Source: Syntrophobacteraceae bacterium (GTDB lineage: Bacteria; Desulfobacterota; Syntrophobacteria; Syntrophobacterales; Syntrophobacteraceae). Taken from it: a DNA stretch of 53,622 bases. This document shows, piece after piece, positions 118-44,827 of the stretch. The notes beneath the pieces were generated by a model. The model made no database searches. It worked only from the letters and a program-made list of their open reading frames with translations, and had not been told where the DNA came from. Where the stretch lies: contig JARLHO010000025.1 of assembly GCA_031292215.1 (NCBI GenBank), positions 1 to 53,622 of the forward strand, written 5' to 3'. The translations under genes and the position numbers were made by a program. The first letter of the stretch is position 1. Every line of letters begins with the position of its first letter.

Positions 118-978
118 TCAAAGTCGTTGACACATTCCGCAAGCCGTTGGCGGTGCGAATAAGATGTGCGAGGCGGGTCTGCCTTTTTTGTTCACCCAAC
201 TTCGATAGAACCGGTAATCGGCGCTGACCAGGATACCGAACCATGCGCCGATGAGTTTCTCGAAAGCCTCCCTGGACCTGTTCGTGTGGATCATGAAAAA
301 TGCAACGACGGGGTTGGCCATCACCCACAACCAATTGAGTTTGCCACCCTTGAACCAGGGCGTTCCGTCGATATGGTTTACCTCCGAGGTCCGAGCCTTG
401 TCCGCGAAAGTGTCATAATTTGGTTCAATGGCTTGGGATCCCCGGTCGATCACCTTTTGAATCGCGCCCGGACTGATAGGGATGCGAAGCACCGAGATGC
501 AAGATTTTCGCACCATGTCCCGGCTGTTTCCGGCAATCCCGGCCAGTTCAACTATAAAGGCCGACAGCCTAGGGCCGAAGCCGGTTTCAAATTCACAGGG
601 AACATGCCCTTTGTTGATCTTGCCGCATTGACGACACTTGCCGCGATAGAGGATAAAGTGGACTATCTTCATCACGATTTCGGGCAACTCGATATTTTGG
701 TGCGTATAGTATGGCTTGAGATCGGCTAATTGGTCGCATCCACAGGAGCAGGGCCCAGGAAAGATATTTTGGGTTTCGGTTGGGTTGAGCATTTGAAACC
801 GATGGCCCTTGTGTCCTTTTCGCGTCTTTGGTTTGCTTTTTTTCTCGGCTTTGCTGGAACTTCCTTTTTTGTACAGGCTGTACGAAGAAGGCGGACGGCT
901 TGAATTGGACGAATCCTGGTTGAGTCTGGCCTCAAGCTCCCCGATACGTTTTAGCAGCTGCAAAACGTGCGTCCGCAC
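118..978 (-). pseudogene. IS66-family transposase, 5' fragment with frameshift
   Basis: The reading frame encodes about 286 residues resembling the N-terminal two thirds of an IS66 (TnpC) transposase. There is a coiled-coil start, a Ser/Pro/Lys-rich linker, a CxCGC...CRQCG zinc-binding segment, then the catalytic core with HIDGTPW and a GILVSADY block that would carry the first two acidic residues. The frame is lost at a run of A residues near 190. In a shifted frame the next stretch reads like the family consensus (KRQTRLAHLIRTANGL). The rest of the core, including the catalytic Glu, is missing. The start is a GTG at 978 after an in-frame stop. This is a dead remnant. No partner orfs (tnpA/tnpB) or terminal inverted repeats were recognised. 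Confidence 0.85.
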
Positions 979-31694: not shown

Positions 31695-33119
31695 TCAACT
31701 GCGTCCGTATTTATCCTCAAACCGGCTGATGTCGTCTTCTCCCAGGTAGCTGCCCGACTGCACCTCGATTAGCTCAAGTGGAATTTTTCCGGGGTTTTCC
31801 AACCGGTGCCGGGTACCCCATGGAATGTAGGTGCTTTGATCTTCGTTTAGAAAAAACTCCTCCTCCCCCTTGACTATGCGGGCTGTCCCCCGCACCACGA
31901 CCCAGTGCTCCGCCCTGTGGTAATGCATCTGGAGGGAAAGGGCCGCGCCGGGATTTACCGTTATGCGCTTTACCTTGAAACGCTCCCCGGTGTCTATGGA
32001 CTCAAAGGACCCCCAGGGGCGATAAATCTTGGAATGTGAAAAGACCTCTTCTCTTTTCTGCTTTTTGAGTTTGTCCACTATGATTTTTACGTCCTGTGAG
32101 CGCTCGATCGAAGAAACGAGCACCGCGTCCTTGGTCTCTACCACGATCAGGTTTTGTATGCCAAGGGCTGCAACGAGCCTGCTGTCCGAATGAATATGGC
32201 AGTTGTGGACATCTTCGAGCAGTACGTCTCCTGTGGAGCTGTTTAGACATTCGTCTTTTTCGCACACATCGTGTAGCGAGTTCCAACTGCCCACATCACT
32301 CCAGCCGACGGCGAGCGGAATCACCGCCGCGTGCGCGGTTTTTTCCATTACCGCATAATCTACCGAAATATTGGGGCACGCTTCAAAAGCGCACTTTTCC
32401 AGCCGTACGAAATCGAGGTCCCGGGTAGCTTTTTGGTAGGATTGGCGGCAGGAGTTAAGGATTTCAGGCGCCAACCTGCCCAGTTCCTCGAGAAAGGCAG
32501 AAGCGCGGAATAAGAACATGCCGGAGTTCCAAAGATACTCTTTGGATGCCAGGTAGGAGCATGCCTTTTCATAGTCGGGCTTTTCAAAAAACCGGCTCAC
32601 CTCGTAGGCCTCGCTCTCCTTGCTCCCTGAAATCTTTTCGCCTTTTCGGATATATCCATAGCCGGTCTCCGGCCTGTCCGGAACGATCCCGAAAGTAATG
32701 ATCCGTCCAGCCGATGTGAGTTCGCTTACCTTTTGGATAGCCGAGGCAAACAGCCGATCGTCCCGGATGAGATGGTCCGCGGGCAGGACTAAAATATCGG
32801 GGTCCTCTCCGTCTTTCATGGCTGCGAGCGTTCCCGCGGTGATCGCCGGGCAGGTGTTTCGCCCCAACGATTCGAGGAGGATATCCCCGTAGGGAATGCC
32901 GATCTGCTGCATTTGCGCGGCCGCCATGAACCGATAGGATTCGTTGCAAACAACCACGGGAGGTGCTGTGCCTGCAATCCCGCTAACGCGCATAAGGGTT
33001 TTTTGAAACAATGAGTGAGCTTCTCCAAGTAAAGGCATCAACTGCTTGGGAAGATGTTCCCTCGAAAGAGGCCACAGTCTGGACCCCACCCCGCCTGAGA
33101 GGATGACCGGTACTATCAT
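31695..33119 (-). CDS. manC: Mannose-1-phosphate guanylyltransferase / mannose-6-phosphate isomerase
   Basis: 474 residues, bifunctional type II. The N-terminal nucleotidyltransferase begins PVILSGGVGSRLWPLSREHL with PKQLMPL. It contains FEKPDYEKA, WNSGMFLFRASAFLEEL and SVDYAVMEKT. The C-terminal cupin (residues about 350-474: YRPWGSFESIDTGERFKVKR, then MHYHRAEHWVVVRGTA) is the phosphomannose isomerase domain with its metal-binding histidines. It supplies GDP-mannose for surface glycans or GDP-fucose. It is 20 kb from the polysaccharide cluster and alone, divergent from the PFK gene. Confidence 0.96.
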   Translation of the reverse strand: MIVPVILSGGVGSRLWPLSREHLPKQLMPLLGEAHSLFQKTLMRVSGIAGTAPPVVVCNESYRFMAAAQMQQIGIPYGDILLESLGRNTCPAITAGTLAAMKDGEDPDILVLPADHLIRDDRLFASAIQKVSELTSAGRIITFGIVPDRPETGYGYIRKGEKISGSKESEAYEVSRFFEKPDYEKACSYLASKEYLWNSGMFLFRASAFLEELGRLAPEILNSCRQSYQKATRDLDFVRLEKCAFEACPNISVDYAVMEKTAHAAVIPLAVGWSDVGSWNSLHDVCEKDECLNSSTGDVLLEDVHNCHIHSDSRLVAALGIQNLIVVETKDAVLVSSIERSQDVKIIVDKLKKQKREEVFSHSKIYRPWGSFESIDTGERFKVKRITVNPGAALSLQMHYHRAEHWVVVRGTARIVKGEEEFFLNEDQSTYIPWGTRHRLENPGKIPLELIEVQSGSYLGEDDISRFEDKYGRS

Positions 33120-33389
33120 TTCTTTAAACCTTTATGAGGGTACAAAGTTAAATTTTGCGGACATGCCGCCATCGAAGTCGAAACCAAACTTTTTAAGCCT
33201 CTTTTTTTACCCTACAAACGCCGTTATGTGGAGCAATAATTTTTGCAACCTCCAATAATACTTGTCTTTGAGAGGCATGCAAAATCGTGTATCCTCGGTG
33301 CGGTTGCCGCCTGTTTGCGAATCCACAGCTCTCCCGGTGCTTCGTGGACGGGCGGCTGCGGGGCTACTTTTTCGAAAAAGAAGGCATCG

Positions 33390-35663
33390 ATGATAAAGAC
33401 TTTGGCGGTAATGACAAGTGGCGGAGATTCTCCGGGCATGAACGCCGCAGTGCGGGCCGTGGTGAGGCGCGCACTCTCCCGGGGGCTTCGGGTATACGGA
33501 ATATACTGCGGCTATGATGGGCTTTTGCGGGGCGGCGATCTCATAAAGGCTCTCAACTGGCAGGATGTTGGAAACGTTCTCCAGCGGGGGGGGACTTTCC
33601 TTGGCACGGCCAGAAGCGAGCAGTTCAGGACTCTCGATGGCAGGCGGCGCGCCGTCGAAAACCTGCTCGACCTCGGCGTTGAAGCCCTGGTGGTGATCGG
33701 GGGCGATGGTTCTCTTACCGGAGCCCTTCTTCTTTCCAACGAATGGCCCGAACACGTCGAAAAAATCGCCTCCGTTCGCCCCGATCTTCGACCGATGGTC
33801 GAACATGTTCCCATGCTTCAGGTAATGGGGCTCCCGGGCTCAATAGACAATGACCTCATCGGGACCGATATGGCCATCGGCGTCGATACCGCTCTAAATC
33901 ACATCGTGCGCGCCATAGACGACCTGTCGTCGACGGCTGCCTCCCACCAGCGTACGTTCGTAATCGAGACGATGGGCAGAAACTGCGGCTATCTGGCTCT
34001 TGCCGCAACCCTTGCCACCGGGGCCTCCTGGGTGCTCATTCCCGAATGTTCCCTCGAGTTGCACTGGCATCAGCGGATGGTCGAAAGCCTCGATAAGGCC
34101 CGTAAAACCGGAAGGCGCCACCAGATGGTGGTCATCGCCGAAGGCGCCAGACACCCCGACGGGCTGCGGATGGAAGCGGGCGAGGTGCGAAAGATACTGG
34201 CGGAAAAGCTGGGGCTCGAAGTACGCCTCACCGTTTTGGGACATGTCCAGCGAGGAGGCGCTCCGAGCGCTTTTGACCGGATTCTGGCAGCGCGCCTGGG
34301 GGTGGCCGCAGTCGACCTCCTGGTCGACGAGCCCGGTGTGGTCCATAGGCATATGGTCGGCGTCAAAAAGAACAGGGTGATTTCCACACCTCTTAATGAA
34401 GTGATAGAAAAGAGTAGGGAAATCCAGCATCTAATCGACTCCGGAGATTTCAAAAAATCCCTGGAGCTTCGTGGAGGCGCCTTCCGAACCATGCTCGATC
34501 TGGTCGAGGCCCTGACCGCTGCCTGTCCGTCGCAGGAATCGCACGGGCAGGGCAGGGTGGTGATTATGACCGGAGGCGCCGATTCGCCGGGCATGAACGC
34601 TGCCCTTAGCATCGCCGCAAGGCGCCTTCTGGACCGGGGAGTGTCCGTGCTTGGCTCAAGAGATGAATTCCATGGCCTGACACATGGCGATTTCGTCGAT
34701 CTCCAATGGAATGATCTCGCGGGATGGATGGGCCGCCCGAGTTCCGATATAGGAACTGCCCGTTCCAGTCAGGTCAGGGAAGATTTTGGAAGGATTGCCG
34801 AAAATATCGCCAAATTCAACATCAAGGGCATCATCGCCATCGGGGGTCTGGATACCTACCGCCACTTAGAGCGCTTTATTGATATGAGGACGGATTTCCC
34901 GGAGTTAAATATCCCCGTGGTTCTCGTGCCTGCAAGCATTGATAACAATCTTCCGGGCAGCGATCTGTGCGTGGGCTCCGATACGGCCCTAAATAACATC
35001 GTCCAGGCCGTCGATAAGATCCGCGATACCGCCGGCGCGACCAGGCGGGCGTTCATAGTCGAAACGATGGGGAAAGAATGCGGATTTCTTGCCGCAATGA
35101 GCGCTTTGGCGGCCGGAGCCGATAAGGCCTACCTGCCCGAAACCGGTATAAGCCTTGCCGAATTGAGCCGGGACGTCTCGGATCTCAAAAGCAGCTTCGA
35201 GTCCGGAAACCGAATGGTCATATACATGCGAAATGAGGTGGCCTCCGGTCACTACACAACGGATTTTCTCCGCAGGCTGCTCGAAGAGGAAAGCAAAGAC
35301 GAATTTGAGGTGCGTAGCGTCGTGCTCGGCCATGTCCAGCGCGGCGGGGCGCCTACGGCTTTTGATAGAATTCTGGCCGGAAGGATAAGCGCTGCCGCCG
35401 CCGGGGCGCTCCTGGATCTTATGGAGAGCGGAGCAAACGATGTGCTCGCCTTCGGCCTACAAGAGGGCGCAGTGGCATCGTGTCCGCTCGTGGATGCCCT
35501 CGATCAAATAGATGACCCTCATGGCAGGCCAAAGGTCCAGTGGTTTATGGACCTTTTCCCCGTCGTCCAATCTCTATCCAAGATCCGATCGCGCAGCCCG
35601 GGCGAGGGGGAGAGCATTGGCCATGAACCCGCAGTCCTGCGGCCCTTACCTGCCGGGCGCTAA
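33390..35663 (+). CDS. Tandem-fused 6-phosphofructokinase
   Basis: 757 residues made of two homologous PFK domains joined head to tail, about twice the usual bacterial length. Domain 1 (1-390) has TSGGDSPGMNAAVR, IGGDGS (104-108; Gly107 as in ATP-dependent enzymes), LPGSIDNDLIGTD with catalytic Asp153 and Asp155, ETMGRNCGY, and GHVQRGGAPSAFDR. Domain 2 (391-757) has the same order, but GGDGS is GGLDT (485-489) and SIDND is SIDNN (516-520). It keeps ETMGKECG and GHVQRGG. The C-half is therefore probably catalytically dead and may be regulatory, as in eukaryotic PFK-1. Start at ATG 33390 after AAGAAGG; the longer frame to 33243 has no homology. Confidence 0.95.
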   Translation: MIKTLAVMTSGGDSPGMNAAVRAVVRRALSRGLRVYGIYCGYDGLLRGGDLIKALNWQDVGNVLQRGGTFLGTARSEQFRTLDGRRRAVENLLDLGVEALVVIGGDGSLTGALLLSNEWPEHVEKIASVRPDLRPMVEHVPMLQVMGLPGSIDNDLIGTDMAIGVDTALNHIVRAIDDLSSTAASHQRTFVIETMGRNCGYLALAATLATGASWVLIPECSLELHWHQRMVESLDKARKTGRRHQMVVIAEGARHPDGLRMEAGEVRKILAEKLGLEVRLTVLGHVQRGGAPSAFDRILAARLGVAAVDLLVDEPGVVHRHMVGVKKNRVISTPLNEVIEKSREIQHLIDSGDFKKSLELRGGAFRTMLDLVEALTAACPSQESHGQGRVVIMTGGADSPGMNAALSIAARRLLDRGVSVLGSRDEFHGLTHGDFVDLQWNDLAGWMGRPSSDIGTARSSQVREDFGRIAENIAKFNIKGIIAIGGLDTYRHLERFIDMRTDFPELNIPVVLVPASIDNNLPGSDLCVGSDTALNNIVQAVDKIRDTAGATRRAFIVETMGKECGFLAAMSALAAGADKAYLPETGISLAELSRDVSDLKSSFESGNRMVIYMRNEVASGHYTTDFLRRLLEEESKDEFEVRSVVLGHVQRGGAPTAFDRILAGRISAAAAGALLDLMESGANDVLAFGLQEGAVASCPLVDALDQIDDPHGRPKVQWFMDLFPVVQSLSKIRSRSPGEGESIGHEPAVLRPLPAGR

Positions 35664-36716
35664 AGCCCATAGACTTTTTTGTGATTGCCCATCTCGCCGG
35701 CCGCAGCCGGGCAAGAGGCCGGAAGGTGGGCGGGGGGGGCGCGCGGCTTTGGAACGCCGCCGAGGCGGCGCGGTTACTAGCTCGTCCCGATACAGAGTGG
35801 CTTGAGCCTTGAAAATGGCGTGGCAGTTAAGATTACGGGTCGCAATCGGGCGCAGAATCAAGGTAAGCGTTCACCACAGTCTCTCATGTTGCTTCGGAAC
35901 ATCCAAAGCAATAAAAAGATGTTCCGGGGGCAGGTTCTTTTCCAGAGCAGCGCTGCTTAGCCGCGACAAAACCAAAGTAAACCACAGAGACACGGAGGCA
36001 CGCCCACTTACCCCTTAGCGGAGACTCCCAAGAAAGGGGCTTGGCCTGATCGCCCCCCTTTTTTGCAAGGGGTTGGGGGGATTTACTCTCCAGCAGCTTG
36101 CAATGACGCGCATGGACCGGCTGGGTTCGCTCGCCCCCCTTATTTGCAACTTTGCAAAAGGAGATAGGTGGGCGCATGTGTGGGTAATTGTAAGCTCGCA
36201 GGGGGGGACATTAAAGCTTTGGCCCGCTTTTAAAAGATCGGCTCTCTTTTTAGTATCGGCGCTTTTGCGGAGCGGGCAAATCTGCCTGTATCGCTGATAC
36301 GGCCCGAAACCGGGAGCGGAGGAGGCGCCATTGTCTGTGTCGAGACGTGATGGTAACTAAAAGGACGCGGAGTTCGAGGACGCATTCGTTTACGCAAGGG
36401 GGATACGGGCCGATAGGGCCCGTCAACCGCCAGGTGGACCCCGGTCCTTTGGCCAAACGGCCAAACGCCGGCGCAAAATACGTGGTCACAGCATATAGGA
36501 GATTGTATATTGATTTTAATAGGCGCACCAGGGCCGCTTCCCCGAGACCCGGTCCAGGTAGCGCAGGGGGACCCCGGCCAGTCGGGTCGCCGGGAGGGTT
36601 ATTTGGAACCCTCGCTGCAAGGGGGAGCGTCTTAAAAACACTCGCGACAGGTTGGCCGGGATCGTTGCGAGGATCTCGATGTTTTTGTCACCAGGCGCTT
36701 TGGAAAGGAGACGCAA
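35664..36716. other. Gene-poor region with dispersed repeats
   Basis: About 1.05 kb between the PFK gene and the Uma2 gene. Short ORFs on both strands lack domains and good ribosome sites. Notable elements are a GC hairpin near 35754-35772 (CGCCGCC / GGCGGCG), a fragment of a widespread type of repeat (AAACCACAGAGACACGGAGGC, about 35978-35998), and the repeat block at 36043-36170. I see no intact gene. Confidence 0.5.
36043..36170. repeat. CCCCCCTTTTTTGCAA repeat block, copy 1
   Basis: Contains GATCGCCCCCCTTTTTTGCA, GGGGTTGGGGGGATTTAC, TTGCAATGACGCGC and a second CGCCCCCCTTATTTGCAA. The same modules occur at 51509-51602. The C6-T6/A-G6 elements can pair to form a hairpin (CCCCCTTTT.. with GGGG). 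This is a dispersed non-coding repeat. Confidence 0.75.
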
Positions 36717-37202
36717 ATGGAATGGCGTGAAGTGGTCGAACATCCAAGCTTGCAAGACCTGCCTTTCAAGATAGAAACGAATGCGGAAGGCTACATTATG
36801 ATGGTCGCAGCCAAGAACAGGCATCGATTATACCAGGCTCGCATACATGTATGGTTTGAACACCATGGAGAAGAAAACAAAGCGATGGAGGAATGCAACA
36901 TCCAAACATCCGATGGCGCCAAGATTGCCGATGTCGCATGGAGAAGCCTCGAATTTATTAAAAGGAATAAGGATAGTGATCCATATCAGGAATCTCCCGA
37001 AATCGTTGTCGAAGTGATATCGCCATCTTACAGAGAAAAGGCGATGAAAAGCAAAATGTCATTGTATTTTGAGAAGGAAGCCAAAGAAGTTTGGTTCTGC
37101 GACGATGATGGCAATATGGGTTTCTTCAATCCTCAAGGGGAATTGGAAAGAAACGAGCTTTTTAAGGAATTCCCCGGACACATCGACATCGAAGTCGGGT
37201 GA
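36717..37202 (+). CDS. Uma2 family (DUF820) putative endonuclease, paralogue 2
   Basis: 161 residues, start supported by AAAGGAGACGCAA before the ATG. Motifs parallel the gene at 22635-23123: [84 protein letters not shown]. The PD-(D/E)XK-like catalytic Asp, Glu and Lys positions are retained. It stands alone on the plus strand, convergent with the 1659-residue kinase. Function is not established for this family. Confidence 0.85.
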   Translation: MEWREVVEHPSLQDLPFKIETNAEGYIMMVAAKNRHRLYQARIHVWFEHHGEENKAMEECNIQTSDGAKIADVAWRSLEFIKRNKDSDPYQESPEIVVEVISPSYREKAMKSKMSLYFEKEAKEVWFCDDDGNMGFFNPQGELERNELFKEFPGHIDIEVG

Positions 37203-37432
37203 GCCGGGCAAATTTTCTTCGGGGTGCGTCGATTGTTTGTTTTGCGCCGGGATCGCGGTGAGGAGTTGCTACGATAAGGGGCGGTCCTATGAGAGAGATA
37301 AGGGTCGTCCCCATGGAAGAACTGAAAAGATGAGATGGCCGGCGCGGTGCGAGAGCGGAATGGCCGAAGGCGTGAGTTGGAAAAGGCAGCAGCCTTTTTG
37401 CGCGAAAGCGGCGAGACTTATCTCCGGGAAGT

Positions 37433-40400
37433 CTATCGCAAGCGCTTATCCGGCCAGCGAACCCGAACGGTCGTGCCTTCACCGGGACAAGAGCTGATGG
37501 TGAATTCGCCCGCGCTCAGTTCGGCCCTCTCTCTCATGCCCAGTAACCCCAGGCTTTTGGCGCTTGCCGATTCCAAAATGAAATCGAGCTCCATCCCGAC
37601 TCCCTCATCGCTTATTTCCAGCTCTATCGCCCCGTTACTCCCTGCAAGACGCACGTCTGCCCACTCCGTTTGGCTGTGTTTGCAGCAGTTGTTCAAGGCT
37701 TCCTGGACAATTCTAAATATTGCGATTTTTAGCTCTTCGCGGATTGCTTCCTCGCTGATTTTAGCTTCCAGCTCTATGTGTATCCCGGGATAAATCGCCA
37801 TGAGCTGCCGGCGATACCACTCCAGGGTGGCCAATATCCCGTGATCGGATAAAATCGTGGGTTTTAGCCCCATGTAGATTGTTCGCGTCTCACCGATGGA
37901 GCGCTGCAAGATGGGAACGAATTCATCCAATAGCCTTACGGCCTCATCGCTCTGCCCTGCTCGCAGCTTATCGGAGATGTGCTCGATGCGAAACTTGAGG
38001 GCGGCAAGCGTTTGTCCGATACTGTCGTGTAGATCGGCGGCCAGTCTTTGCCTGTCCGTTTCCTGGGCTTGAATGAGCAAAGACGGCGTAAGGCGCAGCT
38101 TCTCATTGGCCGCTTCCAGGGCCGCTGTCCGTTCATAAACCCGAGATTCCAGCTCCTCTTTTGATCTGCGAAGCTCTTCTTCCATTCGATGTCGATCCGT
38201 TACGTCCAGCGCGAGCGAAAGGATCGACCTCAGGTTGCCCGAATCATCCGGAAGAGACGAGTTATACCATTCGCAGTAAGCGACCGATCCGTTCTTGCGG
38301 TAGTTGTGGTTTGAGGAAAAGCGCTGCGGGTTGGCGCCGCTCGTTAGCTCACCCATGACCTCGGCGACTTGAGACTGGTCTTGCTCATAAATCCAGTGGA
38401 AATCTTCGACTCGTTTACCGATAACCTCCTCGGCGCTCCAGCCGAACATGCGTTCGGCCGCACCCGACCAGCGGTTGATCCGCAAATCGGCATCGAACTC
38501 GATAACCGCCAGAGGTGAATGATCCACATGGTAGCTCAGGCGCTGGGTGAGCTCGCGCAGCTCCTCCTCCATCTTCTTTCGCTCGGTTATATCCACTGTT
38601 ACGGCAACCCCTCCGGAAATGTTGCCTTCCTCGTCGAAAATCGGCGCCGCGGAAGCCTCCGCCATCCAGCGTCGCCCGCCGGGAAGCAATACCTCAACCT
38701 CTGTTGGCGCAATCAACCGTCTCTCTTCGACTGCTAATTTAAGGGGGAGCTCACTAAATCTTACTTCACGGCCATCCTTAAAAAATCGAACTCGCGATTC
38801 CTGCGTGCACCGTTCCAGTAACGAGGGAAACAGGTTATCGGGTCCGATTTCGAATTGAGCGCGCACCGTCCGGTTTCCGGTAATATCTATGCAAGCTACA
38901 TCGTTTGAAAAGCTTACGCCCACCGGCAGTCCATCCATGAGCGCCTTGAGGCGCTGGTTTGCTTTGAAAAGCTTTTCCTCCGCCTCTTTGCGCTCCGTGA
39001 TATCGATTGCGACACATCCCAGCCCACGCATGCCTCCGGGCAGTGGAACGGGAAAGTAGGACGCCTGCCGGTAAACGGTCCCTCCGCTTCCCGCCGGCAC
39101 AGGGCTTTTAATTTCAACGCTTTGCTCCGGGGTCCCCGTTTCGATCACGCGCCTCAGCATTGCCCCGTAATCCCTGATGACGTCCGGCGCAAGCTCTGAG
39201 GACGCCCTGCCCGCCATCGCCTCGTTTTCGATCCCGAAATGGGCCGATAAAGTTTTGCCGGCTTTTATGTACCGCAGTTCTTCGTCTTTTATATAGATGA
39301 CACCCGGGAAGGCGTTAAAGAATGCATCCAGTGTCTCCTTGCTGACGCGCAACTCGTCTTCGGCCTGTTTGATCTCGGTGATGTCGGTTCCGACTGCGAT
39401 CGCTCCGATGATCTTCCCGCCCGAGTCTTTTACCGGCGTCGCCCGGACGTGCCATGAGCTGCAGTCGGCCGGCCAGTGTGGTTGGTTTGCTGGTGTCAGA
39501 GCCGCTTCCCGGGGTTTGCCGGTTTCAATTGCCGCGACGACCGGGCAGTTGATGCACTGCCTGTCCACTCCCCAACTGGAGTAACACTTGCGGCCTTTTA
39601 TCTCCGATAGCTTCGAACCTGTCATTTTGAGGAAGCTGCGATTGCACCTTATAAGATTCATTTGGGTGTCGTAAAAAGCGATTGCCTCGCTTATGTTATC
39701 GAGAATCAGGCTTTTTTCTTCCTCCGCTTCCCGCAATGCCTCCTCGTAGCGCTTGCGCTCGGTGATATCCTTGGCCGTTCCAAACCACTCGATCACCTCA
39801 CCGTGGTGGTCCAGCAGAGGAACAGCGCGTGAAAACGTCCACCAGACGGCCCCGTCCTCCCGCAGGACGCGGTGTTCCGACTCAAAGGGGCTCTTGGCGC
39901 CAATCGCCTCTTTTATGGCATCGAGTAGCTTTGGCCGGTCATCGGGGTGGATGAACTTTTCGAGCCAGGGGGTAAAAGGGGTCTCAATGTCCAGGCTTAT
40001 CTCTTGCGATTTCAATTGGCGCAGCTTGCTCCAGTCCGGGCTCATTCGGTAAATAACATCCGAGCTGGCGGTAACGAAAGCGCGGAAGCGCTCCTCGCTC
40101 AATCGCAGCTCCTCTTCGGACTTCTTGCGAAGTCGCGCCAGATTGAGGTGGGAAGCCACGCGGGCAAGGAGTTCACCGGCGCTGAAGGGCTTAATGAGGT
40201 AGTCGTCGGCCTCTTCGCGCAAACCCTCGATAAGAGACTCTTCCCCGGCGCGAGCGGATAGAAGGATGACGGGAATGGTTCTAAGGGTTGGATCCGAGCG
40301 CAGGGTGCGCAGAAGTCCGAGGCCGTCCAGGCGAGGCATCATGATGTCGCTCAGGATGAGATCCGGCCGAGTCTGCCTTGCGGCTTCCAGGGCCGCCTGA

Positions 40401-42412
40401 CCGTCTGAAACCGTCCGCACGTCGTAGCGGCTGCCAAGCATATGCGCCAGGTATTGACGCATGTCGGCGTTATCGTCGGCCACAAGAAGCCGCGGCATGC
40501 TTTCGTCCGCTGCTCCCGAACTCCATTTGGCGGGCGGGAGGTCATCTTTTGGAAACGCTCCGCCGGCCTCTGTCGGGCTAGCCTCCGGGAGCCGGCGCAT
40601 GGCCTCTTCGACAAACGGCGCGGCCTCCGCGGAAGTCAACGCCCGCGTTTTGGCCCCGCCGACCTGCTCCTCGGGTAGATGGGCATGTCCGAGCGGTACG
40701 GACACAATAAAGGAGGTTCCTTCGCCCAGCCGGCTTTCCACCGCAACCGAGCCGCCATGCAGCCTGGCCAGTTCCTGCACCAGCGCCAGCCCGATGCCGC
40801 TGCCCTCGTGGGTGCGGCTGCGCCTATTCGCCAGGCGGTGAAATCGCTCGAACAACCTGTCCAAATCCTTTGCAGCGATCCCCACCCCCGTATCGCAAAC
40901 GCGCAGTTGCGCCCTCCCGTCCACTGTTTTGAGCGTTACGCCGATCTCCCCTTCGAATGTGAACTTGAATGCGTTTGCAACCAGGTTTAAAACGATTTTT
41001 TCCCACATCTCCCGGTCCACGTAGACCGGTTCGGAAACCGTGGCACAATCCACCGTTAGCCGCAATCCCACCCGTTCGATCGCTGAGCGGAAAAGGCTTG
41101 CAAGCTCTGCGGTGAAACCTCCCAGCTCGGTTGGCTCAAACAGCGCCTGCACTCTGCCCGCCTCGATGCGCGAGAAATCGAGCAGCGTATTTACCAGGCG
41201 CAGCAGCCTCTTGCCGTTTCTGTGTGTTACCTCGAGCTGCTCCTTTGCGGCGGGAGATAGCTCCCAATTGTCTTTCGAAAGCAACTCCTCGATGGGTCCC
41301 AGCATGAGCGACAGGGGCGTACGGAATTCGTGGCTGATGTTTGAAAAAAAAGTGGTCTTTGCCCGGTCGACCTCCGAGAGCGTCTCGGCGCGCTTTTTTT
41401 CCTCCTCGTATTGCCGGGCGTTCGCGATGCTCGTGGCGATCTGGGAGGCCACCTGTTTTAAAAACTCGCGATACGGCTCGTCTAGTTTTATCCTCGGGCT
41501 TATGCCCGCCACCAGGAAGCCCTCCAGGTAGCGACCCTTGTTGGAATGGATCGGCAAAATAGCGGCGGTGTGCGCCCCTCCGGCCACCTGGACCCCCGGA
41601 CGCTCCAAGAGATCCGTTACCGTTTGCATCGCCTCGCTTCGCATCGCCTCGCGAAGCGGCCAGACCGAATCCCCCGCGTCCTCGACCGCAAGAGTTATGA
41701 TCTCGGGGCCGGTCCCTACTGCGGCCGCTCCGGCCAGCCGGGCAGTCCTTCGATCCGCGCCTATCAGATACAGCAGTGAAAAAGGGATGTCCAAGGGGTG
41801 TGCCCCCAGGGTCTTGGCGGCTGCAGCGCACGCCTCAAAGGCGGTCTTTGCTCCGGCGGATCGCCCCCCCAGCTCGCGCAGAACTTTCTCGCGGCGGTCG
41901 CCAAAAATTTTTTCGCTGATCTCGTGGACGGTCGCCAGCACACCGCCTATCCCCCCGGCCGCTGTCTCGTCGGGCACCGGGCTGTAGGCGATGGTAAAAT
42001 GGGCCTCCTCGACATAGCCGTGGCGATTTAGTTCAAGACATAGATCTTCGTTCCAGGTCGCGGGCCCCCCGGAAAACGGCGTGTCGATCAACGGCTGAAG
42101 AACGCTCCAGTTCTCCTTCCAACACTCACTCACCGGTTGACCCAGGGCCCACGGGTGTTTTTCGCCGAGCACCGGGCGATAGGCATCGTTATATATCGAT
42201 ATATACTGAGGCCCCCACCACAGCAGCATCGGAAAGCGGTTCGCCAAAAGAAAACGCGTCATTCTTTGCAGAGCGGGCGACCAGGTATCGGTGTTCCCAA
42301 CCACCGTCTTCGACCAGTCGAACGCGCGAATCCGTTCGGCCATTTCGCCGCCGCCGGCAAGGAAATCGAGATTTTTTTTCTTTATCGGCGCGCCTGCTTG
42401 CTCCTCGAACAT
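37433..42412 (-). CDS. Giant hybrid sensor kinase with two kinase modules
   Basis: 1659 residues, no membrane helices seen. Order: PAS-like region (about 40-175), GAF-like (190-335), HisKA with SNISHEFRTPLSLMLGP (His361), HATPase with Asn480 and CDTGVG (507), receiver domain (640-760) with LILSDIMMPRLDG (Asp689) and LIKPF (Lys741), about five PAS domains (770-1410), coiled coil, and a second kinase of HisKA_3 type with LAADLHDSIGQTLA (His1462) plus its own HATPase (EALNNCCKHS, SDEGVGM at 1601). The second module usually phosphorylates NarL-type regulators; none is nearby. It lies 83 bp after the membrane hybrid kinase and is probably co-transcribed. Confidence 0.93.
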   Translation of the reverse strand: MFEEQAGAPIKKKNLDFLAGGGEMAERIRAFDWSKTVVGNTDTWSPALQRMTRFLLANRFPMLLWWGPQYISIYNDAYRPVLGEKHPWALGQPVSECWKENWSVLQPLIDTPFSGGPATWNEDLCLELNRHGYVEEAHFTIAYSPVPDETAAGGIGGVLATVHEISEKIFGDRREKVLRELGGRSAGAKTAFEACAAAAKTLGAHPLDIPFSLLYLIGADRRTARLAGAAAVGTGPEIITLAVEDAGDSVWPLREAMRSEAMQTVTDLLERPGVQVAGGAHTAAILPIHSNKGRYLEGFLVAGISPRIKLDEPYREFLKQVASQIATSIANARQYEEEKKRAETLSEVDRAKTTFFSNISHEFRTPLSLMLGPIEELLSKDNWELSPAAKEQLEVTHRNGKRLLRLVNTLLDFSRIEAGRVQALFEPTELGGFTAELASLFRSAIERVGLRLTVDCATVSEPVYVDREMWEKIVLNLVANAFKFTFEGEIGVTLKTVDGRAQLRVCDTGVGIAAKDLDRLFERFHRLANRRSRTHEGSGIGLALVQELARLHGGSVAVESRLGEGTSFIVSVPLGHAHLPEEQVGGAKTRALTSAEAAPFVEEAMRRLPEASPTEAGGAFPKDDLPPAKWSSGAADESMPRLLVADDNADMRQYLAHMLGSRYDVRTVSDGQAALEAARQTRPDLILSDIMMPRLDGLGLLRTLRSDPTLRTIPVILLSARAGEESLIEGLREEADDYLIKPFSAGELLARVASHLNLARLRKKSEEELRLSEERFRAFVTASSDVIYRMSPDWSKLRQLKSQEISLDIETPFTPWLEKFIHPDDRPKLLDAIKEAIGAKSPFESEHRVLREDGAVWWTFSRAVPLLDHHGEVIEWFGTAKDITERKRYEEALREAEEEKSLILDNISEAIAFYDTQMNLIRCNRSFLKMTGSKLSEIKGRKCYSSWGVDRQCINCPVVAAIETGKPREAALTPANQPHWPADCSSWHVRATPVKDSGGKIIGAIAVGTDITEIKQAEDELRVSKETLDAFFNAFPGVIYIKDEELRYIKAGKTLSAHFGIENEAMAGRASSELAPDVIRDYGAMLRRVIETGTPEQSVEIKSPVPAGSGGTVYRQASYFPVPLPGGMRGLGCVAIDITERKEAEEKLFKANQRLKALMDGLPVGVSFSNDVACIDITGNRTVRAQFEIGPDNLFPSLLERCTQESRVRFFKDGREVRFSELPLKLAVEERRLIAPTEVEVLLPGGRRWMAEASAAPIFDEEGNISGGVAVTVDITERKKMEEELRELTQRLSYHVDHSPLAVIEFDADLRINRWSGAAERMFGWSAEEVIGKRVEDFHWIYEQDQSQVAEVMGELTSGANPQRFSSNHNYRKNGSVAYCEWYNSSLPDDSGNLRSILSLALDVTDRHRMEEELRRSKEELESRVYERTAALEAANEKLRLTPSLLIQAQETDRQRLAADLHDSIGQTLAALKFRIEHISDKLRAGQSDEAVRLLDEFVPILQRSIGETRTIYMGLKPTILSDHGILATLEWYRRQLMAIYPGIHIELEAKISEEAIREELKIAIFRIVQEALNNCCKHSQTEWADVRLAGSNGAIELEISDEGVGMELDFILESASAKSLGLLGMRERAELSAGEFTISSCPGEGTTVRVRWPDKRLR

Positions 42413-42495: not shown

Positions 42496-44724
42496 TCACT
42501 CGCCGGGTTGATCGAGCACCTGCCTTACCTTCCATGCGAAATCATCTTTTCTGAATGGCTTCTGAATGAAGTTTACCGTCTCATCGAGAATGCCGCGATT
42601 GCTCATCACATTGGCGGTGTAGCCCGACATATAGAGAGATTTGAGACCGGGCCTGATTAGGCCAAGCTTTTCCACCAGTTCGCGGCCGTTCATCCCGGGC
42701 ATGATTACGTCGGTAATCAAAAGATCGATATCTCCCGGATAAATATTGGCCAGATTTATCGCGAGCGCTGGAGCCTGAGAGGCGAGCACCGTGTAGCCCA
42801 GCGCCTCGAGCATGCTTTTGCCGATATCCAGGATCGACTCGTTGTCTTCTACCAGCAGGATCGTTTCGGCGCCTGTCAGAGAATCGCCCGTCGCCATGCT
42901 CTCGGTGGCCGCCACCGTTCCGTTCTCGCTCTCCGGCAGGTAGACGGTAAATGTCGCTCCTTTCCCGGGTTGGCTTACGACATCGATAAAACCGTCGTTT
43001 TGTTTGACAATGCCGTAGACGGTGGAAAGCCCGAGGCCGGTGCCCTTGCCCAATTCCTTGGTGGTAAAAAACGGCTCGAATATCTGTCCGCAAACTTCCC
43101 TGCTAATACCTGCTCCGGTGTCTTTTACGGACAAAAGGACATAGCTTCCAGGTGTCAATTCCGGCTTCTGCGCCCTGGCGGCATCATCGACGGCAAGATT
43201 ATCGGTCATAACGGTTATGCTGCCTGCACCGCAGATGGCGTCGCGGGCGTTTACCACCAGGTTGACCAATATCTGATCGATCTGGGAGTGGTCGATTCTG
43301 ACTTTTCCAAGATCTGTTCCCGGCTTCCAGGACAGTTCGATATCCTCGCCTATCATCCGCCGAAGCATCGAGAGCATTCCCGGGATCGTCTCATTTAAAT
43401 CCGTAATTTTAGGAGTGGTGGGCTGTTTGCTGGCAAAGGTCAGCAGTTGCCGTGTCAGGGCGGAGGAACGTTGGCCGGTCCGGATGATTTCTTCCAGGTT
43501 TTGCCTCGCCAGGTAATCGGATGCGGAGCAATGAAGCGCCATCTCCGCCCGTCCGATGATAACGCTTAGCATATTGTTGAAATCGTGAGCCACACCGCCT
43601 GCCAGCCGTCCTATCGACTCCATCTTTTGAGCGAGAAACAGCTCCTTTTGGAGCTTTTTCTTTTCCTCCTCTGTTTTTTTCCATGCGGTGATGTCGCGGA
43701 TTATGCTAAGGACCATGTCTTCCTGGTTCAGGCGTAGAATACGAGCGGACACAAGCCCCGTTAAAAGCCTGCCGTCCTTTGCGCGAAACTCCGCTTCCAC
43801 GTTTTCTACGAACCCTTTGCCGGCGACGCGCGCTTTAATGCGATCCCTTTCCTTGGGGTTGTGCCATATTTTGAGCTGAAGAGGGGTTTTCCCGATGATT
43901 TCCTCGCGCGTATAACCGGTAATTTTTGTGAAACCCTCGTTTATATCGATGACCATTCCATCCGAAAGACGATTGAGATTGATCGAATCGGGGCTTGTTC
44001 GAAAGGCGAGCCTGAACTTTTCCTCGCTTTCTTCCACCGTTTTTTGCGCAAGCTTGCGCTCTGCAATTTCCAGGCAGATCGAATCGTTTGCCCTTCGCAC
44101 CTCTTCCAGCAGCTCTAGGTTTTCAAACCGTAAGAGGATGACCGAGGTGACGAACCGGTTGTGTTTTTGTCCATAGATAATGATGGCAAGCAGGAAAAGC
44201 ACGCCCAACATGGCTATGGTGTGTCCGAGTTCTCCCCCCTCCATCCAGCATTGGACGACGTAGGCCATCACAACCGGTGCGGATAACGCCGCGGGACCCA
44301 ATTTCAGGGGAGAATGGGATACCGGGGTCGTCGCGACAACGCAGGCGATTACGAGCAGAAAGAGAAAAATCAGGCCGGGGTGATTTAGGGGTGGTAAAAT
44401 TAGTAAAGCCGAGGCCCCCCAGACACTCCCGGCGATAAAGTTAAAAATAAGATAATGATTTCGCCAGTGCTTCCCGTTAAATGCATTATCGCGCACCTTG
44501 CGAAATTGAAGGTATAGGGCCGTCCTTGCGAGAGTTGTCGCCAGAAACATGGAAATCCATACCGGAATTTTCCAGGTGGCGATAGTCCCAAATGCTGTCC
44601 AGGCAAGCGCAAAAGCCGCTATCAGCGTGGAAATGAGCGTCGTTGGGAGCTGTTGCATCGCAAGACGAACCTGCTCCCTTAAAATCCTGTCCTTGTAATT
44701 TTCATCCATTTTCGACAACTTCAT
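42496..44724 (-). CDS. Membrane hybrid sensor histidine kinase (PAS-HisKA-HATPase-REC)
   Basis: About 742 residues from ATG 44724; the frame is open to a TTG at 44772, and ATGs at 44730 and 44709 are alternatives since no clear ribosome site decides. Roughly six membrane segments (about 25-185) form a sensor region, followed by a coiled coil and a PAS domain (about 235-345). HisKA has GGVAHDFNNMLSVIIGRAEM (His380), then HATPase (NLVVNARDAI, DTGAGI, GKGTGLGLSTV) and a C-terminal receiver with LLITDVIMPGMNG (Asp672). It belongs to the VAHDFNN subclass of hybrid kinases. It precedes the giant kinase and follows the carboxypeptidase gene. Confidence 0.92.
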   Translation of the reverse strand: MKLSKMDENYKDRILREQVRLAMQQLPTTLISTLIAAFALAWTAFGTIATWKIPVWISMFLATTLARTALYLQFRKVRDNAFNGKHWRNHYLIFNFIAGSVWGASALLILPPLNHPGLIFLFLLVIACVVATTPVSHSPLKLGPAALSAPVVMAYVVQCWMEGGELGHTIAMLGVLFLLAIIIYGQKHNRFVTSVILLRFENLELLEEVRRANDSICLEIAERKLAQKTVEESEEKFRLAFRTSPDSINLNRLSDGMVIDINEGFTKITGYTREEIIGKTPLQLKIWHNPKERDRIKARVAGKGFVENVEAEFRAKDGRLLTGLVSARILRLNQEDMVLSIIRDITAWKKTEEEKKKLQKELFLAQKMESIGRLAGGVAHDFNNMLSVIIGRAEMALHCSASDYLARQNLEEIIRTGQRSSALTRQLLTFASKQPTTPKITDLNETIPGMLSMLRRMIGEDIELSWKPGTDLGKVRIDHSQIDQILVNLVVNARDAICGAGSITVMTDNLAVDDAARAQKPELTPGSYVLLSVKDTGAGISREVCGQIFEPFFTTKELGKGTGLGLSTVYGIVKQNDGFIDVVSQPGKGATFTVYLPESENGTVAATESMATGDSLTGAETILLVEDNESILDIGKSMLEALGYTVLASQAPALAINLANIYPGDIDLLITDVIMPGMNGRELVEKLGLIRPGLKSLYMSGYTANVMSNRGILDETVNFIQKPFRKDDFAWKVRQVLDQPGE

Positions 44725-44827
44725 TCCCATCCGCGGATGGACCACATAAAGGCGGCTTGCCGGTTTACACAAAACGCTCGATCCCGTAAGGGTTTGTATG
44801 GGATCGTCCCGGTCTTGTCAATTTGTA

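What the first reader, a model, noticed from the sequence alone, without database searches (positions are those of the whole stretch)
33390..35663. Bacterial tandem PFK with a decayed second active site, parallel to eukaryotic PFK-1
Two complete PFK domains are fused in one frame. The first keeps GGDGS, PGSIDND and GHVQRGG. The second keeps the fold motifs but has GGLDT and SIDNN where ATP- and base-catalysis residues should be. In animals and fungi the same division gave a catalytic N-half and a regulatory C-half. That bacteria reached it independently, and that the C-half binds an effector, are inferences.
Basis: partly seen in the sequence, partly recalled or inferred. Interest (0 to 1): 0.6.

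Follow-up and report, generated by a model that had tools for sequence, protein, structure and literature searches.

The report
Animal/yeast-type double phosphofructokinase in bacteria
A group of sulfate-reducer-like bacteria carries the same two-part glycolytic enzyme (PFK-1) that animals and fungi use, one half catalytic and the other probably a sugar-phosphate sensor; the two share one ancient gene fusion rather than two separate inventions, so this textbook "eukaryotic" design exists in bacteria and may have begun there.

Summary
Window 33390-35663 (+) encodes a 757-aa protein with two fused PFK domains. The N-half keeps every catalytic residue. The C-half has lost its ATP/Mg site. The motif reading needs correcting: the C-half KEEPS the catalytic-base Asp (D518, E. 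coli D127) and the whole fructose-6-phosphate pocket. It loses the G11, D103, R82 and D129 equivalents. It is not decaying: dN/dS is about 0.1, as in the N-half.

"Reached independently" is not supported. N-halves group with animal/fungal N-halves, and C-halves with their C-halves. Independent duplication is rejected (AU p about 1e-7). Half-specific residues and an identical 37-residue C-half segment are shared. Recent transfer from eukaryotes is also unlikely: 17 bacterial tandems from three families of one order, plus one outlier, form their own clade.

The protein passes the NCBIfam "eukaryotic" PFK-1 model over its full length and models like human PFK-1 (TM 0.92-0.94).

Best reading: an ATP-dependent PFK-1 whose C-half is a fructose-phosphate (F' site) sensor in a pre-F2,6BP form. 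Effector binding is inferred, not shown. Direction of transfer is open. A more divergent double PFK in another class hints at a bacterial origin.

The parts
33390..35663 (+). Tandem ATP-dependent 6-phosphofructokinase (eukaryotic-type PFK-1), 757 aa
   Evidence: TIGR02478 791 bits over 1-741/744, cut-off 708; AlphaFold pTM 0.88, pLDDT 86; human/yeast PFK-1 TM 0.88-0.94
33378..33384 (+). AAGAAGG, Shine-Dalgarno-like, 5 nt before the ATG
   Evidence: sequence
33390..34538 (+). N-half (residues 1-383), catalytic; PF00365 match at 33402-34322
   Evidence: all 17 bacterial N-halves keep G11, R72, F76, R82, D103, G104, S105, D127, D129, R162, M169, R171, E222, R243, H249, R252 (E. coli numbering)
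33699..33713 (+). GGDGS (residues 104-108), ATP/Mg loop; G at the 104 position is the ATP-type signature
33834..33854 (+). PGSIDND (residues 149-155); D153 = catalytic base D127, D155 = D129
34539..35660 (+). C-half (residues 384-757), non-catalytic, predicted sensor; PF00365 match at 34554-35405; residues 734-757 unconserved and disordered
34842..34856 (+). GGLDT (residues 485-489): D103 position is Leu487, ATP/Mg loop lost
   Evidence: L 9, W 7, V 1 of 17 bacterial C-halves; F in eukaryotes
34932..34955 (+). ASIDNNLP (residues 515-522): base Asp D518 kept, D129 position is Asn520
   Evidence: Asn in 17/17 bacterial and 6/6 eukaryotic C-halves
31695..33119 (-). Neighbour: mannose-1-phosphate guanylyltransferase/mannose-6-phosphate isomerase (manC-like), divergent; no functional link to PFK claimed
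   Evidence: orthologous position confirmed in L004 as TIGR01479

Best explanation
This is a bacterial eukaryotic-type PFK-1. The N-half phosphorylates fructose 6-phosphate with ATP. The C-half has lost the ATP/Mg site but keeps an intact fructose-phosphate pocket, the counterpart of the eukaryotic F' effector site. It most likely binds fructose 6-phosphate or fructose 1,6-bisphosphate and tunes the N-half through the shared PFK-1 architecture. Because the Asp that eukaryotes changed to Ser is still present, it probably does not respond to fructose 2,6-bisphosphate. The fusion and the N/C division of labour are homologous to those of animals and fungi (one event), followed by transfer between domains. 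Shown: architecture, residue pattern, selection, shared ancestry of the halves under the model and taxa used. Inferred: ATP as donor, no C-half activity, the C-half ligand, and the direction of transfer.
For: Full-length TIGR02478 match above cut-off. AlphaFold model matches human liver/platelet/muscle and yeast PFK-1 over about 740 residues at TM 0.88-0.94; single bacterial PFKs cover only half. Trees: bacN+eukN 98/92, bacC+eukC 97/89, repeated with added taxa (98/90, 98/89). AU rejects bacN+bacC (p 1.8e-7) and eukN+eukC (p 6.6e-7). Shared half-specific residues: 9 for N, 7 for C, against 1 (bacN=bacC) and 0 (eukN=eukC). The GG..SIDN segment is exactly 37 aa in 17/17 bacterial and 6/6 eukaryotic C-halves, 44-53 aa in bacterial N-halves and 53 in eukaryotic ones, 30-31 aa in 18/18 single PFKs; Trp at R54 in all 46 halves of the two tandem groups and no single. 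C-half F6P residues match the catalytic consensus 93%, ATP/Mg residues 17%, whole half 34%; dN/dS about 0.07-0.14 in both halves. Yeast Pfk1 P728L, reported to make PFK active without AMP or F2,6BP (PMC12084563), falls in this C-half SxNNxP motif if chain 3o8o_A is offset by 200 (my inference).
Against: No enzyme data for any bacterial member. The C-half keeps the catalytic base, so residual activity is not excluded by sequence alone. Eukaryotes sampled: only two animal and four yeast sequences taken from PDB alignments. Other bacterial phyla could not be searched. C-half branches are long, so some attraction between them is possible, although the N-halves tell the same story.
Confidence: 0.77

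Rival explanations
1. Independent duplication-fusion in bacteria that converged on the eukaryotic plan.
For: Bacterial and eukaryotic proteins are only about 41% identical; duplication of PFK is easy to imagine twice.
Against: AU p 1.8e-7; N- and C-specific shared residues and identical segment lengths; almost no bacN=bacC-only residues.
Confidence: 0.04
2. Recent transfer from an animal or fungus into these bacteria, or eukaryotic contamination.
For: The family model is named eukaryotic and the closest solved structures are animal and yeast.
Against: Bacterial halves form their own clade outside animals+fungi (100/99 N, 99/92 C); present in 30 of 55 class genomes and many genera; lies among bacterial genes in the window; a manC-type gene upstream in a second genome of the genus.
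Confidence: 0.03
3. One shared fusion that arose in an early eukaryote and passed to these bacteria long ago.
For: Tandem PFK is described as general in animals and fungi (PMC12203962), while in bacteria I found it in one order plus one outlier and a divergent group.
Against: A divergent double PFK (L042, L043, L095) in another class falls outside the bacteria+eukaryote pair; all three of its C-halves have Trp54 and Asn129 and group with all other C-halves (99/96 for L042 and L043). If it shares the fusion, bacteria surround eukaryotes on the tree.
Confidence: 0.35
4. The C-half still phosphorylates some sugar phosphate, perhaps with another donor (PPi or ADP).
For: Base Asp, R162, R243, H249, R252, R72 and E222 are kept.
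Against: D103 and D129, which bind Mg-phosphate, are replaced in all 17 bacterial C-halves; G11, F76, R82 and G108 are also lost. D103 is also the Mg-phosphate residue of PPi enzymes (general PFK knowledge).
Confidence: 0.06

Closest known systems
Eukaryotic ATP-dependent PFK-1 (TIGR02478/IPR009161; human PFKM/L/P, yeast Pfk1/Pfk2)
   Same: Tandem fusion, catalytic N-half, ATP-less C-half, shared half-specific residues and segment lengths, fold over full length
   Different: Bacterial; C-half keeps D127 (Ser in eukaryotes) and R252 (Gln), D103 is L/W/V not F; no yeast-type N-terminal extension
Bacterial single-domain ATP-PFK (PfkA; E. coli, Geobacillus/Anoxybacillus)
   Same: N-half catalytic residues; about 45-49% identity to the N-half
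   Different: One domain; no second regulatory half; segment 30-31 aa; no Trp54
Divergent double PFK of another class in the phylum (L042, L043, L095)
   Same: Two fused PFK domains, catalytic N-half, Trp54 (C-half 3/3, N-half 2/3), Asn129 in C-half
   Different: Below the TIGR02478 cut-off (411-450 bits); C-half also lost the sugar pocket; L042 and L095 carry a Cys-rich, zinc-ribbon-like tail
Long PPi-dependent PFK (PRK07085-type), the only other PFK found in this genome (contig C143)
   Same: PFK superfamily
   Different: Single PFK domain, about 28% identity, not tandem

Membership tests
Eukaryotic-type PFK-1 (TIGR02478) | Full-length score above the curated cut-off | tested here: met
   791 bits vs 708; yeast Pfk1 1103
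Eukaryotic-type PFK-1 (TIGR02478) | Both halves orthologous to the eukaryotic halves (same fusion) | tested here: met
   limited eukaryote sampling
Eukaryotic-type PFK-1 (TIGR02478) | N-half catalytic residues intact, ATP-type (G104, G124) | tested here: met
   17/17
Eukaryotic-type PFK-1 (TIGR02478) | C-half ATP pocket lost | tested here: met
Eukaryotic-type PFK-1, F2,6BP-responsive branch (animals, fungi) | C-half F' site with Ser at D127 and Gln at R252 | tested here: not met
   Asp 17/17 and Arg 17/17 in bacteria. A ligand-specificity trait of the eukaryotic branch, not required by the family model
Eukaryotic-type PFK-1 (TIGR02478) | ATP-dependent PFK activity with allosteric control by the C-half | not testable with these tools
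   needs purified protein
Eukaryotic-type PFK-1, F2,6BP-responsive branch (animals, fungi) | F2,6BP made in the cell (PFK-2 domain, PF01591) | tested here: not met
   No PF01591 match in the window's genome; only weak partial hits (27-35 bits) in 7 of 39 genomes of the order

The most novel reading that the evidence does not exclude
The duplication-fusion that made animal and fungal PFK-1 happened in bacteria and was later acquired by eukaryotes; the C-half was already a fructose-phosphate sensor, and eukaryotes retuned it to F2,6BP by changing one Asp to Ser and one Arg to Gln.
Probability: 0.4. Interest if true: 0.75.

Novelty: new variant of a known kind. Interest (0 to 1): 0.58.

Why it matters
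A 2025 review presents the tandem fusion as the mark of eukaryotic PFKs and describes bacterial ATP-PFK structures as single-domain (PMC12203962). A bacterial sister with an intact sugar pocket but no ATP site gives an outgroup for how PFK-1 allostery arose, and makes the origin of F2,6BP control testable with a few residue swaps in a bacterial protein. I found no open paper describing these bacterial enzymes, but a family model already collects them, so they are not invisible in databases.

Tried and rejected
Viral contigs: no relative. Plasmids: the 15 best hits listed are all single PFKs. Gene neighbourhood: a manC-type gene sits upstream in the window and in L004, but neighbours differ in other families; no functional operon inferred. 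PF01591 hits in relatives are weak and partial and were not counted as F2,6BP synthases. My first residue table was off by one and was redone. Literature searches for bacterial tandem PFK found nothing.

Full report
WHAT IS THERE. The frame 33390-35663 (+) encodes 757 residues with two PFK domains. It matches the NCBIfam equivalog TIGR02478, eukaryotic 6-phosphofructokinase-1, over 1-741 of 744 positions at 791 bits, cut-off 708. Yeast Pfk1 scores 1103. AlphaFold gives pTM 0.88, and the best structural matches are human PFKL/PFKP/PFKM and yeast PFK at TM 0.88-0.94 over about 740 columns, while single bacterial PFKs cover half. The contig is bacterial; named close relatives are Syntrophobacteraceae, Desulfobacteraceae and other deltaproteobacterial MAGs.

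DISTRIBUTION. 30 of 55 genomes of the class carry a full tandem above the cut-off, and three more carry fragments. All belong to three families of one order (39 genomes); six genomes of the order and all 16 from three other families of the class lack it. In 395 genomes across the phylum, the only further full match is G056, on a 3.6-kb contig of a 66%-complete genome. Three genomes of another class carry a divergent double PFK at 411-450 bits. Fourteen control genomes have none above the cut-off. Other phyla could not be searched.

RESIDUES. In E. coli numbering, all 17 bacterial N-halves keep the catalytic set and the ATP-type glycines at 104 and 124. In the C-halves the ATP/Mg site is gone: G11->A (16/17), F76 and R77 scattered, R82->F/L/Y/V, D103->L/W/V, G108 mostly K/N/H, D129->N (17/17). 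The sugar-phosphate pocket is kept: D127, R162, M169, E222, H249, R252 in 17/17, R243 in 16/17 (Lys in one), plus R72 in 17/17. Agreement with the N-half consensus is 93% for the F6P site, 17% for the ATP/Mg site, and 34% for the half as a whole. dN/dS is 0.08-0.14 (N) and 0.07-0.14 (C), so the C-half is a maintained part, not a decaying copy. The old bacterial effector site is split between halves: N keeps R21/R25 but not R154/E187; C keeps R25, R154, E187/D and mostly K213 but not R21.

ONE FUSION, NOT TWO. The tree of halves with 18 single PFKs puts bacterial N with eukaryotic N (98/92) and bacterial C with eukaryotic C (97/89). A second alignment with added taxa repeats this at 98/90 and 98/89. 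Forcing bacN+bacC or eukN+eukC is rejected, AU p 1.8e-7 and 6.6e-7. Independent of the tree, nine residues are shared by bacN and eukN only and seven by bacC and eukC only, versus one and zero for within-domain sharing. The segment from the GG loop to SIDN is 37 residues in every bacterial and eukaryotic C-half, 30-31 in every single PFK, and 44-53 in N-halves; position 54 is Trp in all 46 halves of these two groups and in no single PFK.

DIRECTION. Bacterial tandems form a clade outside animals and fungi (100/99 N, 99/92 C), which speaks against a recent gift from the sampled lineages. Which way the older transfer went is not settled. The divergent double PFK (L042, L043, L095) shares Trp54 (C-half 3/3, N-half 2/3) and Asn129, and its C-halves join all C-halves (99/96). 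A common N clade that includes it is not rejected (AU p 0.11), while a separate duplication for it is marginally rejected (p 0.037). If it shares the fusion, eukaryotes lie inside bacterial diversity, which favours a bacterial origin. Its branches are long, so I give this moderate weight.

MECHANISM. In eukaryotic PFK-1 the C-terminal ATP pocket is lost and the F6P pocket became the F' effector site; human PFKP shows fructose 1,6-bisphosphate there (PMC12203962). The bacterial C-half has the same state, but with D127 and R252 unchanged; eukaryotes have Ser and Gln. From memory, yeast mutants with Asp at this Ser lose F2,6BP activation (Heinisch 1996; title seen, residues not verified here). 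The genome has no F2,6BP-synthase domain that PF01591 detects. I therefore predict an F' site for F6P or FBP, insensitive to F2,6BP. This step is inference.

LIMITS. Only six eukaryotic sequences were used, taken from PDB alignments. There are no biochemical data. The open-paper library does not hold many PFK papers, so prior description of bacterial tandem PFKs cannot be ruled out.

Noticed in passing
L042 (G124), L043 (G374), L095 (G434): A divergent double PFK in another class of the phylum: catalytic N-half, C-half that lost both ATP and sugar sites; in L042 and L095 a C-terminal tail with CxxC pairs resembling a zinc ribbon. Possibly a pseudo-PFK regulator domain of a new kind.
   Followed up: partly
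L094 7619-9460 (-) (genome contig C143): The only other PFK found in the genome is a long PPi-dependent type (PRK07085, 697 bits), so the tandem enzyme is the only ATP-type PFK-A found here.
   Followed up: yes
window 118-978 (-): Translation resembles an IS66-family transposase, possibly truncated; read by eye only.
   Followed up: no
window 37433-42412 (-) and 42496-44772 (-): Two large adjacent sensor kinases with several PAS-like regions, read from the translation only.
   Followed up: no
window 35664-37800: About 2 kb downstream of the PFK gene holds only short overlapping frames; possible decayed or non-coding stretch.
   Followed up: no
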